Below are positions 1,939 through 61,867 of a stretch of DNA of 64,000 nt, in pieces (within the stretch, counting starts at the first letter, position 1; each line of letters opens with the position of its first letter). The stretch spans positions 496,001 through 560,000 of the forward strand of contig NZ_CP010523.2 in NCBI RefSeq assembly GCF_000828055.2, read 5' to 3'. Both the position numbers and the translations under genes were made by a program. The notes beneath the pieces are model-generated. The model saw only the letters and a list, made by a program, of their open reading frames with translations. It did not search any database and was not told the origin of the DNA. The stretch is from Klebsiella variicola. Lineage in GTDB: Bacteria > Pseudomonadota > Gammaproteobacteria > Enterobacterales > Enterobacteriaceae.

Positions 1939-3207
1939 ATGGAACCGATTACCATCACCCTATGTTTGCTGGTGTTCGCTATCGTCATGTTCGTCTGGGA
2001 GAAAGTGCCGCTGGCAGTGACTTCCATGGTGGTTTGTGTGGCGTTAGTGGTCACTGGCGTATTGGATCTGAAGCAGGCCTTTGCCGGTTTTATCGACAGC
2101 AATGTCATTCTTTTTGTCGCCATGTTCGTCGTCGGCGGGGCGTTATTTGAAACCGGGATGGCCAATAAAGTCGGCGGGGTGATCACTCACTTCGCCAAAA
2201 CCGAAAAACAGCTGATTTTCACCATCATGGTGGTGGTCGGCGTGATGTCGGGCTTTCTTTCCAACACCGGTACGGCGGCGGTGCTGATCCCGGTCGTCAT
2301 TGGCGTGGCCGCCAAATCGGGGTTTTCCCGCTCGCGTCTGCTGATGCCGCTGGTGTTTGCTGCCGCGTTGGGCGGCAACCTGTCGCTGATTGGCGCCCCG
2401 GGCAACCTGATCGCGCAATCGGCCTTACAGAACATCGGCAGCGGCTTCGGTTTCTTTGAGTATGCGAAAGTGGGTCTACCGATGCTGGTCTGCGGCATCC
2501 TCTATTTCCTGACCATCGGCTATAAGTTTTTGCCCAATAATCCAAACAGCGGGGAAGTGGGCAGCGTCGGCGAACAGCGGGATTACAGCCACGTTCCACG
2601 CTGGAAGCAGATCCTGTCCCTGGTGGTGTTGATCGCCACGATCCTCGGCATGATTTTCGAAAAACAGACCGGCATTAGCCTGGCGGTGGCCGGCTGTATC
2701 GGTGCCCTGGTGCTGGTGGTTACCGGGGTGCTGACGGAAAAGCAAGCTTACAAAGCTATTGATTCACAGACTATTTTTATTTTCGGCGGCACCCTGGCGC
2801 TGGCAAAGGCGCTGGAAATGACCGGGGCGGGCAAGCTGGTGGCTGACCAGGTTATCGGTCTGCTGGGCAACAACTCCTCGCCGTTCATGCTGCTGGTGGT
2901 GGTCTTTGCCCTCTCCGTGGTGATGACCAACTTTATGTCCAATACCGCCACCGTCGCGCTGTTGGTGCCGGTGAGCCTGTCGATTGCCGCCGGTATGGGC
3001 GCCGATCCGCGTGCGGTGCTGATGGCGACGGTGATTGGAAGCTCCTGCGCCTATGCGACGCCGATCGGGATGCCCGCCAATATGATGGTGCTGTCGGCCG
3101 GGGGCTATAAGTTCGTCGATTACGCCAAATCCGGCATCCCTCTGATTATCGTTTCCACCATTGTCAGCCTGATCCTGCTGCCAATCCTTTTCCCTTTTCA
3201 TCCGTAA
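1939..3207 (+). CDS. SLC13/DASS-family dicarboxylate transporter, probable tartrate uptake
   Basis: A 422-residue inner-membrane permease with about 11-12 hydrophobic segments. It has the two signature SNT motifs of the Na+-coupled SLC13 family: SNTGTAA (residues 108-114) and SNTATVA (about 334-340). The start chosen is ATG 1939, with AGGAAG 10 bases upstream; an in-frame start at 1918 has no ribosome site. It heads ttdA-ttdB, so L(+)-tartrate or a related dicarboxylate is the likely substrate. The Salmonella counterpart (STM3356, from memory) is the gene whose start-codon mutation is used to type tartrate-negative strains; the ATG here is intact. Na+ coupling would match the Na+ pump downstream. 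Confidence 0.85.
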   Translation: MEPITITLCLLVFAIVMFVWEKVPLAVTSMVVCVALVVTGVLDLKQAFAGFIDSNVILFVAMFVVGGALFETGMANKVGGVITHFAKTEKQLIFTIMVVVGVMSGFLSNTGTAAVLIPVVIGVAAKSGFSRSRLLMPLVFAAALGGNLSLIGAPGNLIAQSALQNIGSGFGFFEYAKVGLPMLVCGILYFLTIGYKFLPNNPNSGEVGSVGEQRDYSHVPRWKQILSLVVLIATILGMIFEKQTGISLAVAGCIGALVLVVTGVLTEKQAYKAIDSQTIFIFGGTLALAKALEMTGAGKLVADQVIGLLGNNSSPFMLLVVVFALSVVMTNFMSNTATVALLVPVSLSIAAGMGADPRAVLMATVIGSSCAYATPIGMPANMMVLSAGGYKFVDYAKSGIPLIIVSTIVSLILLPILFPFHP

Positions 3208-3239
3208 CTTACGGACGCTGTTCTGACTAAGGAGCCTTT

Positions 3240-4139
3240 ATGAGCAAAAGCGAACAGATATCCCGCATGACCGACATCATGGCCAGATTTGTGGGATATA
3301 CCGGCAAAGTATTGCCTGATGACGTCACGGCAAAACTAAAAGAGTTGCATAAGAAAGAGACCAGCCAGCTGGCGGACGTCATCTTTACCACCATGATTGA
3401 AAACCAGCGTCTGGCGAAAGAGCTGGATCGTCCCTCCTGCCAGGATACCGGCGTGATCCAGTTTCTGGTGGAGTGCGGCGCCAACTTTCCGCTGATCGGC
3501 GAACTGGAAGCGCTGCTGCGCGAATCGGTGATCAAAGCCACCGTCGACTCCCCGCTGCGTCATAACAGCGTCGAGACCTTTGATGAATACAACACCGGCA
3601 AAAACGTTGGCAAAGGGACACCCACCGTTTTCTGGGAGATCGTCCCGGATTCCGATCAGTGCAGCATCTACACCTATATGGCTGGCGGCGGCTGCTCGCT
3701 GCCGGGTAAAGCGATGGTGTTAATGCCTGGCGCTGGCTATGAAGGGGTGACCCGCTTTGTGCTGGATGTGATGACCAGCTATGGCCTGAACGCCTGTCCA
3801 CCATTGCTGGTTGGCGTTGGGGTGGCAACGTCGGTGGAAACCGCGGCGCTGCTGTCGAAGAAAGCGCTGATGCGCCCGATTGGCTCGCACAATGATAACG
3901 AACGGGCGGCATCGCTGGAAAAAATGCTCGAAGACGGCATCAACAAAATCGGTCTGGGCCCGCAGGGGATGTCCGGCAATACCTCCGTGATGGGCGTCAA
4001 TATCGAAAATACCGCACGCCATCCTTCCACCATTGGCGTGGCGGTCAACGTCGGCTGCTGGTCGCACCGCAAAGGACATATCGTTTTCGATAAAGACCTG
4101 AACTACACCATTACGTCTCACACAGGAGTGGCATTCTGA
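3240..4139 (+). CDS. ttdA: L(+)-tartrate dehydratase / class I fumarase-like, alpha subunit
   Basis: The 299-residue iron-sulfur subunit of an oxygen-sensitive hydro-lyase; with TtdB it dehydrates tartrate to oxaloacetate. Cys67 (PSCQDTG), Cys186 (NACPP) and Cys273 (VGCWSH) sit at the spacing of the three [4Fe-4S] ligands of E. coli TtdA, offset by four. Length matches TtdA (about 303) rather than the fused class I fumarases (about 550). The stop TGA overlaps the ATG of the next gene by one base, so the subunits are co-translated. A class I fumarase of split type is the alternative; the neighbouring oxaloacetate decarboxylase favours tartrate. Confidence 0.88.
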
Positions 4140-58782: not shown

Positions 58783-59334
58783 TTAAAAGCGGAAGTTAAC
58801 CCCGGCATAGACCCCGTCGGCAAGGGTGTTGTCACGATTGCCATCTTTCCCCGCCATATCGATATAACGATAGCCTGCTTCGATATTCAGAGACGGGAGT
58901 ACGTTAATACGTAATCCGGCATTGGCCTCCACATAATCATCGACGCCGCTGGACATTGAGTCCGGCGAATAATACCCCTCACCGAAGAGCGTGAAGTACT
59001 GGCCGAGGGGCAGCTCCGCGCCGCCGCCAGCGGCGATGGCGTAGCCTTCATCACCATCTTTGGGATTCAGATAGACGCCTTTACCGCCCAGCGTCATCAG
59101 AAAAGGTCCAAGGTTAAAGTTGTAGCCCATTCCCAGCCCTACGCTGTCCCCGTCATTGTCGCTGTGAGCCCACTGGGTATTGAACGTCATACCCGGTTCC
59201 CCGGCGCCAAAGCTGGCGGACAGATTGGTGAACTCGGCACCGGCTTCACCATGCAGGTTAACGGATGCGCAGACGGCGCTGCTGGCCCCCAGGGCGATCA
59301 TCACGGCAAACAATTTTGGAGCAATCGACTTCAT
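58783..59334 (-). CDS. YfaZ-family outer membrane beta-barrel protein
   Basis: A 183-residue protein of the YfaZ family, of unknown function. A signal peptide (1-23, ending SAVCASVN) precedes alternating beta strands. The family signature AHSDNDGDSVGLGMGYNFNLGP, seen in two parts near residues 56-77, the KGVYLNPKDGDEGYAIAAGGG block and the GYRYIDMAGKDGNRDN segment are typical, and the chain ends in aromatic Phe (VNFRF), the usual barrel sorting signal. AAGGA precedes the ATG directly after a transcription terminator, so expression may be controlled by read-through. E. coli yfaZ lies elsewhere. Confidence 0.88.
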   Translation of the reverse strand: MKSIAPKLFAVMIALGASSAVCASVNLHGEAGAEFTNLSASFGAGEPGMTFNTQWAHSDNDGDSVGLGMGYNFNLGPFLMTLGGKGVYLNPKDGDEGYAIAAGGGAELPLGQYFTLFGEGYYSPDSMSSGVDDYVEANAGLRINVLPSLNIEAGYRYIDMAGKDGNRDNTLADGVYAGVNFRF

Positions 59335-59352
59335 TGTTGAATTCCTTCAGAT

Positions 59353-59381
59353 AAAAAAAAGCCCGATACGGGCGTTCGGGC
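59353..59381 (-). terminator. Intrinsic terminator just before yfaZ
   Basis: Minus strand: GCCCG-AAC-GCCCG-TAT-CGGGC followed by eight T, ending 19 bases before the yfaZ start. Two identical 5' arms (381-377 and 373-369) can pair with the single 3' arm (365-361), which allows alternative foldings. Confidence 0.8.
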
Positions 59382-59590
59382 AAAATTAACGGGTTCTTGG
59401 ATCTCATCGTTATGGTCGCTGCAGACGGCAGGCGAGGGGGTCAACTCCCGCTACCGCTGCTCACGCCTGGCCGATTTCCGGGGCATATCCTGAGCCGGTG
59501 CAGGCCCGGCGGTTAACGCCGTGAGTGGTTGCCTGCTGGTCGAGCCCAGGGACATGTTGTCCGCCGGTAAATTCAGGTGCTCAGCATAAA
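59382..59590 (-). ncRNA. Candidate structured leader RNA or sRNA upstream of yfaZ
   Basis: A GC-rich block inside an otherwise AT-rich 349-base gap, on the strand that leads into yfaZ. Visible nested helices on the minus strand: GCAGGC (59536-59531) with GCCTGC (59433-59428); CTCACG (59525-59520) with CGTGAG (59465-59460); an internal GGCGTTAACCGCC hairpin (59520-59508) and a GGGAGTTGACCC hairpin near 59450-59437. The terminator at 59353-59381 closes it. It could be a riboswitch-like attenuator for yfaZ or a free sRNA of about 200 nt. The promoter is probably in the AT-rich 59590-59640 stretch, but only a weak -10 (TATGCT) is seen. Confidence 0.5.
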
Positions 59591-59683
59591 ATTTTTCTTT
59601 TTTTACCGTTAGCGTTTATTAATTTAAATTTAAACATTTTCAACATTGAGGCGAGTAACAACAAATAAAGGTGACTGACGCGG

Positions 59684-60313
59684 TCAAAATTTTTCAGGAA
59701 GTGAGGTGATGCTTTGCAAATAACCGCCGCGGGCGAAAGCAATATAACCGCCTTTCTTTAATGCTGACAAGACATTGAGAATACTGCTGCGCGACAGGTG
59801 GGTCCTGTCCTGAATATATTCAAGAATAGACACGCGCAGTCGGGTCTCTGCGGTTAATAGCATCATTTCCAGCAGATGGTTACGGATCACTGAATAGGTT
59901 CGCTGTTGCAGGACCAGATCGTCACGATATACCAGGTAAGAAGTATGATAGGCCAGCAGGCTGGTCACCTCCTCCCACAGGTTATGCTGACGAAAGAGCG
60001 CGGAAGCCAGGTCATAGTCGATGCGTAGCAGTTCGGAAGAGACTTCCGCTCGCAGGCTATGGCTGCGGCTGGGCTGTAGCATTTCCGCCACGCCGAAAAG
60101 GTGGGGCTCATAGACGGTCACCATCAATAGCTTGTCGGAATTCCGAATAATCGATAGCTCGCCTTTTTTAAAAATAAAGAGCTGGGTTTTGCCTTTATAT
60201 TCCCAGGTGAGTCTTTTTCTGGCGATCGCGTTAACGGGCGTCGCGTGTGGCTCAAGCACATCGATCAGTCGGTCAATGGCCTTTTGCGGCCTGATCGGCG
60301 GTTTAATATTCAT
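59684..60313 (-). CDS. IprA (YaiV)-like helix-turn-helix regulator
   Basis: A 209-residue protein resembling IprA, which in E. coli and Salmonella lowers peroxide resistance. The N-terminal part (about 5-130) looks like a degenerate cyclic-nucleotide-binding fold; the C-terminal winged helix is YIQDRTHLSRSSILNVLSALKKGGYI (about 167-192, seen as two adjoining helices). The start at 60313 has GGTGAT 7 bases upstream; a TTG-type start at 60343 is weaker. It reads toward the structured yfaZ leader, 103 bases away. Regulation of yfaZ by it is conjecture. Confidence 0.75.
   Translation of the reverse strand: MNIKPPIRPQKAIDRLIDVLEPHATPVNAIARKRLTWEYKGKTQLFIFKKGELSIIRNSDKLLMVTVYEPHLFGVAEMLQPSRSHSLRAEVSSELLRIDYDLASALFRQHNLWEEVTSLLAYHTSYLVYRDDLVLQQRTYSVIRNHLLEMMLLTAETRLRVSILEYIQDRTHLSRSSILNVLSALKKGGYIAFARGGYLQSITSLPEKF

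Positions 60314-60484: not shown

Positions 60485-61867
<1,383 letters not shown>

What the first reader, a model, noticed from the sequence alone, without database searches (positions are those of the whole stretch)
59353..59600. GC-rich multi-helix leader with terminator directly upstream of a YfaZ-family porin
On the minus strand a block of about 200 GC-rich bases carries nested complementary arms (59531-59536 with 59428-59433; 59520-59525 with 59460-59465) and internal hairpins, then a terminator with eight T that ends just before the yfaZ ribosome site. The terminator has two identical 5' arms competing for one 3' arm, a layout that allows switching. I do not recognise it as any riboswitch or sRNA class I know. 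It may be a cis-acting attenuator of an outer-membrane protein gene, or a stand-alone sRNA.
Basis: partly seen in the sequence, partly recalled or inferred. Interest (0 to 1): 0.7.

Follow-up and report, generated by a model that had tools for sequence, protein, structure and literature searches.

The report
Leader left by a lost porin
The odd stretch in front of this outer-membrane protein gene looks like the promoter, worn-down remains and stop signal of an older OmpA-like gene that these bacteria have lost, rather than a new kind of RNA switch.

Summary
The reading as a conserved multi-helix switch is not supported. In relatives with the same order (argG, HTH_46 regulator, X, yfaZ), X is an OmpA-like gene, with a TTTAAA(A/T)TTAAA box before it and a GCCCGA...TCGGGC terminator between it and yfaZ. 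Nine of 20 Klebsiella-genus genomes have regulator and yfaZ here, and none of the nine has X. Raoultella keeps decayed, collinear pieces of X; K. aerogenes keeps almost nothing. The K. pneumoniae complex has about 150 nt of GC-rich sequence whose middle matches nothing found outside the complex. The terminator is old and conserved, so yfaZ is probably expressed by read-through from the lost gene's promoter (inferred; no transcript data seen). One loose end: 59446-59499 varies less than four-fold sites (7 of 54 against 110 of 283 columns; stretch chosen after looking), so part of the relic may have gained a function, perhaps as a small RNA. Interest is modest.

The parts
59684..60313 (-). winged-helix regulator (HTH_46; weak cNMP-binding-like part), gene upstream
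   Evidence: Pfam HTH_46 E 2.1e-24, cNMP_binding 2.5e-5 (below its cut-off); start as in the 630-nt CDS of a K. pneumoniae record
59623..59634 (.). palindrome TTTAAATTTAAA, probable operator of the regulator (inferred)
   Evidence: exact TTTAAA(A/T)TTAAA in 17 of 18 argG-adjacent rows, 20 of 31 rows in all (no shuffle control)
59583..59592 (-). -10-like TTTTATGCTG; transcript start inferred near 59576; no -35 found
   Evidence: TT(T/C)TAT(T/G)CTG at the same place in the Klebsiella/Raoultella intervals (read by eye); the sigma-70 scan found no promoter-like site
59420..59574 (-). GC-rich block of the finding, confined in these searches to the K. pneumoniae complex; place of the lost OmpA-like gene
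59446..59499 (-). slowly varying core of the block, function unknown
   Evidence: 7 of 54 columns vary among three species against 110 of 283 four-fold columns, p 1.5e-4, stretch chosen after looking
59384..59419 (-). tail shared with Raoultella relics, probably the 3' end and downstream part of the old gene
   Evidence: 31 nt 84% identical to R. planticola and R. ornithinolytica; 5 of 36 columns vary
59353..59381 (-). intrinsic terminator: stem GCCCGA/TCGGGC and eight T
59343..59347 (-). yfaZ ribosome-binding site AAGGA
   Evidence: sequence
58783..59334 (-). yfaZ, 183 codons, outer-membrane barrel protein
   Evidence: Pfam YfaZ E 2.9e-56

Best explanation
The region is the leftover of an older transcription unit: regulator, then box and promoter, then an OmpA-like barrel gene, then an intrinsic terminator, then yfaZ. 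In the Klebsiella/Raoultella lineage the OmpA-like gene was lost, while the promoter region and the terminator stayed. The GC-rich block is what now fills the gap in the K. pneumoniae complex, either the far-decayed gene or sequence that replaced it. Shown by comparison: the gene order in relatives, the absence of the gene here, the kept box, the kept terminator, decayed pieces in Raoultella. Inferred: the regulator acts at the box; transcription starts near 59576; most transcripts stop near 59353 as an untranslated RNA of roughly 220 nt, and those that read through express yfaZ. The helices are mostly incidental folds of a GC-rich relic and not a sensing switch.
For: An OmpA-like gene lies between regulator and yfaZ in L045, L046, L047, L049, G059 and G102 (argG-adjacent, stop codon checked) and in G050 and G037 (no argG in the fetched flank); L048 has a broken copy. 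Its product in L045 has OmpA_membrane and OmpA domains. None of the nine Klebsiella-genus loci with regulator and yfaZ has it. Raoultella intervals match the intact-gene profile in order on one strand: R. planticola E 4.4e-6 and 0.013, R. ornithinolytica 6.5e-4 and 0.53, R. terrigena 0.0033; 0 of 300 shuffles reached the real score in each of the three. Box kept in 17 of 18 argG-adjacent rows. Terminator kept in 19 of 19 loci. The T run ends 18 nt before the yfaZ ATG, which leaves no room for a promoter after it.
Against: The window, G014, K. pneumoniae, JUb54 and G002 score 0 bits against the intact-gene profile, so descent of the block itself from the gene rests on place and flanks only. The E-values are for a set of nine short sequences, and two of the five matches are weak. 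The core 59446-59499 varies less than four-fold sites, which plain decay does not explain. No transcript data were seen; read-through is inferred.
Confidence: 0.6

Rival explanations
1. A new non-coding RNA has been made from the relic: promoter, about 200 structured nt and a T8 terminator act as a stand-alone small RNA in the K. pneumoniae complex.
For: Promoter-like region, block and terminator are in the right order. The block as a whole varies less than four-fold sites (36 of 146 against 110 of 283 columns, p 0.0036) and its core much less (7 of 54). A published K. pneumoniae study reports 75 sRNAs with own promoters in intergenic regions (passage of PMC10907235); whether this locus is among them could not be seen.
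Against: The 5' half of the block varies like four-fold sites (24 of 74, p 0.35). Helix covariation is weak (2 pairs changed on both sides; 181 of 500 shuffles reach that). K. pneumoniae folds no better than shuffles. No RNA evidence.
Confidence: 0.18
2. A cis-acting switch: the nested helices choose between terminator and antiterminator and so sense a signal for yfaZ.
For: The terminator stands in the leader; alternative arms exist in the window.
Against: The listed helices have covariation at shuffle level; no listed arm was found that covaries with the terminator; the second terminator arm is broken in K. pneumoniae; six other Klebsiella/Raoultella genomes keep terminator and yfaZ without the block.
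Confidence: 0.08
3. yfaZ has its own promoter in the tail next to the terminator stem, with the start inside the stem; the terminator only ends the upstream transcript.
For: The tail varies little (5 of 36 columns), and a start inside the stem would remove its first arm.
Against: The consensus scan found no promoter-like site in 59300-59760 (covers sigma-70 type only). AT-rich sequence beside a terminator is common (general knowledge).
Confidence: 0.14

Closest known systems
Intrinsic terminator between two genes of one unit, with partial read-through (general knowledge)
   Same: Hairpin and T run between an upstream unit and a gene whose ribosome site follows at once; kept in 19 of 19 loci
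   Different: The upstream gene is gone in Klebsiella/Raoultella, so the terminator now lies in the yfaZ leader; read-through was not measured
Enterobacterial leaders such as greA (RF01769) and rimP (RF01770)
   Same: Untranslated stretch with hairpins on the coding strand of the gene it precedes; both families have matches elsewhere in this window
   Different: Those are curated families; this block matches none and was found only in the K. pneumoniae complex
5'UTR-derived or intergenic small RNAs of K. pneumoniae (PMC10907235, passages read)
   Same: Possible origin by early termination; T-rich 3' end
   Different: No transcript seen here; the supplement that lists the RNAs could not be read

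Membership tests
Known Rfam riboswitch, leader or sRNA family | Covariance-model score at or above the family's gathering score | tested here: not met
   No match at gathering score in this stretch; best weak match E 0.33, far below its gathering score
Structured cis-regulatory RNA kept by selection on pairing | Compensatory changes in the proposed helices | tested here: inconclusive
Consensus fold: 97.3% of cells paired (18 of 500 shuffles as high) but 2 pairs changed on both sides (181 of 500). Three species and two further K. pneumoniae records only
Intrinsic (Rho-independent) terminator | GC-rich stem followed by a T run | tested here: met
Transcription attenuator with terminator/antiterminator switch | Conserved alternative pairing that excludes the terminator | tested here: not met
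   The second arm is complete in 4 of 19 rows, has G-U pairs in 5, is broken in K. pneumoniae and not seen in 9 (read by eye). Other antiterminators were not searched systematically
Stand-alone small RNA | Discrete transcript with its own start and end | not testable with these tools
   No RNA data; supplements of PMC10907235 and PMC3415461 could not be read
Relic of an OmpA-like gene | Same place as the intact gene and residual similarity to it | tested here: inconclusive
   Place and flanks met in the window; similarity met in three Raoultella species, not met in the window's own block (0 bits)

The most novel reading that the evidence does not exclude
A small RNA born from a dead outer-membrane protein gene: the OmpA-like gene decayed, but its regulator, promoter box and terminator were kept, and in the K. 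pneumoniae complex the untranslated product came under selection (core 59446-59499 and tail) as an envelope-linked regulatory RNA that also limits yfaZ.
Probability: 0.18. Interest if true: 0.65.

Novelty: new member of a known kind. Interest (0 to 1): 0.3.

Why it matters
It explains a puzzling structured leader by gene loss and shows several states side by side in living species: intact gene, broken copy, decayed pieces, GC-rich remnant, almost nothing. If the remnant is transcribed and selected, the locus would be a clear example of a regulatory RNA arising from a lost protein gene. It also points to a probable operator (TTTAAA(A/T)TTAAA) for a little-studied regulator family next to outer-membrane protein genes.

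Tried and rejected
Rejected: a known Rfam family. A repeat or mobile element: no second copy in its own genome better than E 0.137; three plasmid-collection hits, all with argG beside them and two with secG, so probably chromosomal sequence; no phage match, no match in E. coli genomes, no viral contig with the core pattern. A conserved small ORF: the longest ATG frames are 34, 40 and 48 aa at different places in the three species. Descent from nuoH: 46 nt resemble the antisense strand of nuoH in other genera, but the own genome shows no such match up to E 10 and 13 of 198 genomes give some hit at E 0.01, so this is probably chance in GC-rich sequence. Pairing as the cause of slow change: one arm of the long hairpin varies little, the other varies like four-fold sites.

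A covariance model of the block (R1, 150 positions) found only the five sequences it was built from among 21 loci, 3 of 20 genus genomes (150 of roughly 1,200-1,700 first-look candidates scored in each) and 3 of 60 relatives (stricter filters). Weak relatives can have been missed.

Led nowhere: papers. Seven searches were run; I saw listings and starts of abstracts and noticed no paper on this leader. Passages only were read of PMC4404324, PMC10687069, PMC10907235 and PMC3415461; the last two have no 'yfaZ' or 'argG' in the main text. Their supplements could not be read.

Full report
What is there. On the minus strand the order is argG (60485-61828), a winged-helix regulator (59684-60313), the finding, and yfaZ (58783-59334). 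The interval holds a TTTAAATTTAAA palindrome (59623-59634), a -10-like TTTTATGCTG (59583-59592), a GC-rich block (59420-59574, 65.8% G+C), a tail, and a terminator whose eight T end 18 nt before the yfaZ start codon. No Rfam family reaches its gathering score. The consensus scan found no sigma-70 promoter-like site.

Is the fold more than chance? Partly. The whole 248 nt folds better than 196 of 200 shuffles (z -2.53). The result depends on the cut: 59455-59590 gives -2.78 and -2.65, 59435-59584 gives -0.08. G014 gives -4.54 for 138 nt and -2.15 for 150 nt. In two K. pneumoniae sequences the hairpin is ordinary (z -0.67 and +0.21). The first 150 nt of Raoultella relics, which have a different sequence, give -2.62, -0.59 and -1.82, so a fold of this strength is not special to the block.

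What relatives show. An OmpA-like gene lies between regulator and yfaZ in L045, L046, L047, L049, G059 and G102, beside argG, with 343-347 codons and a stop codon; also in G050 and G037, where no argG was in the fetched flank and the stop was not checked. L046, L047 and G059 are close to each other. The L045 product has OmpA_membrane and OmpA domains. A Pluralibacter metagenome assembly (L048) has a broken copy. The regulator stands next to an OmpA-like gene in 18 of the 31 rows; the other 13 are nine Klebsiella-genus loci, L044 (probably the same genome as one of them) and L110, L112 and L119.

Loss in Klebsiella. Nine of 20 Klebsiella-genus genomes have regulator and yfaZ beside argG; the other 11 have only more distant copies. 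None of the nine has the OmpA-like gene in the interval. The interval, counted with the regulator's stop codon, is 689-692 nt in R. ornithinolytica and R. planticola, 454 in R. terrigena, 483 in JUb54, 344-356 in the K. pneumoniae complex, 279 in G002 and 176 in G001. A K. aerogenes record has 173 nt without the stop codon. Raoultella interiors match a profile of intact genes in order and on one strand: R. planticola E 4.4e-6 and 0.013, R. ornithinolytica 6.5e-4 and 0.53, R. terrigena 0.0033 (E-values for nine short sequences). With the first profile 0 of 300 shuffles reached the real score in each of these three, but the window, G014, K. pneumoniae, JUb54 and G002 scored 0. So decay is shown for Raoultella and inferred from place and flanks for the window. 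JUb54 shares three pieces with the Raoultella relics. The window's interior shares only its edges with them: 56 nt on the promoter side with R. terrigena (73%) and 31 nt at the tail with R. planticola and R. ornithinolytica (84%).

What was kept. TTTAAA(A/T)TTAAA is present in 17 of 18 argG-adjacent rows (not L108) and in 20 of 31 rows in all (no shuffle control). A terminator stem GCCCGA...TCGGG(C/T) with a T run stands before yfaZ in 19 of 19 loci, 18 by pattern and G037 by eye; in the 18 it ends 24-46 nt before an ATG candidate of yfaZ. The rows include near-duplicates such as G001 and K. aerogenes. The second GCCCG arm is complete only in the window, G014, R. ornithinolytica and R. planticola; it has G-U pairs in five rows, is broken in K. 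pneumoniae and is not seen in the other nine (read by eye).

Does the block look selected? Among window, G014 and K. pneumoniae ATCC 13883, 36 of 146 block columns vary against 110 of 283 four-fold columns of yfaZ, the regulator and part of argG (p 0.0036). By parts: 5' half 24 of 74 (p 0.35), core 59446-59499 7 of 54 (p 1.5e-4), repeat part 5 of 18 (p 0.46), tail 5 of 36 (p 0.003), terminator 2 of 31 (p 1.3e-4), promoter part 5 of 25 (p 0.08). The parts were chosen after looking, columns with gaps were left out, and no correction was made. Pair by pair, the block differs by 0.12-0.22 per site, four-fold sites by 0.19-0.41, and the spacer upstream of the box by 0.23-0.43.

Helix evidence. The consensus fold of five sequences (A1) has 66 pairs; 97.3% of cells are paired (18 of 500 shuffles as high), the covariation score is as high in 18 of 500, but 2 pairs changed on both sides (181 of 500) and 12 further pair types (458 of 500) are ordinary. 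Placing substitutions at random gives P 0.012-0.133 for six comparisons among three species, and 0.08-0.87 for the three comparisons with a further K. pneumoniae record. Helix B is 5 of 6 in the other four. Together they are at shuffle level. The local pair 59536-59531 with 59505-59500 does better: 6 of 6 in four sequences, with one G-C to A-U exchange, and 5 of 6 in one K. pneumoniae record.

Reach of the block. A covariance model of the block finds it in 3 of 20 genus genomes, 3 of 60 relatives and, of 21 loci, in the five used to build it. In these searches it is a single-copy feature of the K. pneumoniae complex.

Mechanism. The simplest account is an old regulator, OmpA-like gene, terminator, yfaZ unit that lost its first outer-membrane gene. 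Because the T run ends only 18 nt before yfaZ, transcripts of yfaZ most likely start upstream and pass the terminator, or start inside it (inferred). Regulator and yfaZ stay intact and the box is kept where the gene is lost, which fits a promoter that still serves yfaZ (inferred). In G001 only about 37 nt lie between the -10-like site and the stem (sequence), so the GC-rich block is not needed for this arrangement. Whether the block has gained a function is open; the slowly varying core is the one observation that plain decay does not explain.

Verdict. A real, conserved terminator in a leader made by gene loss. A new switch is not supported; a new small RNA is possible but unproven.

Noticed in passing
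window 59623-59634 and the same place in L045-L049, L109, L113, L114, L115, L117: The AT palindrome TTTAAA(A/T)TTAAA follows the regulator gene in 20 of 31 rows, also where the neighbour is another OmpA-like gene elsewhere in the genome; it looks like the regulator's own operator.
   Followed up: partly
L143-L146: Four other Klebsiella-genus genomes carry a related regulator (62-63%) followed by a barrel-only OmpA-like gene of 193 codons, without argG or yfaZ in the fetched flanks.
   Followed up: partly
L163 (CP125156.1) 2460-3651: In K. pneumoniae strain 176 an ISKpn18 element is annotated where the second half of yfaZ would lie, judging from L162, so yfaZ may be interrupted there (not checked in the sequence).
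   Followed up: no
window 59500-59545 (minus strand) and L165-L167: 46 nt of the block are 83-85% identical to the antisense strand of nuoH in three fetched genomes; no such match in the own genome. Probably chance.
   Followed up: partly
   Followed up: partly
L046: The record is titled Chryseobacterium but carries an enterobacterial argG, regulator, OmpA-like gene and yfaZ; it is probably mislabelled.
   Followed up: no
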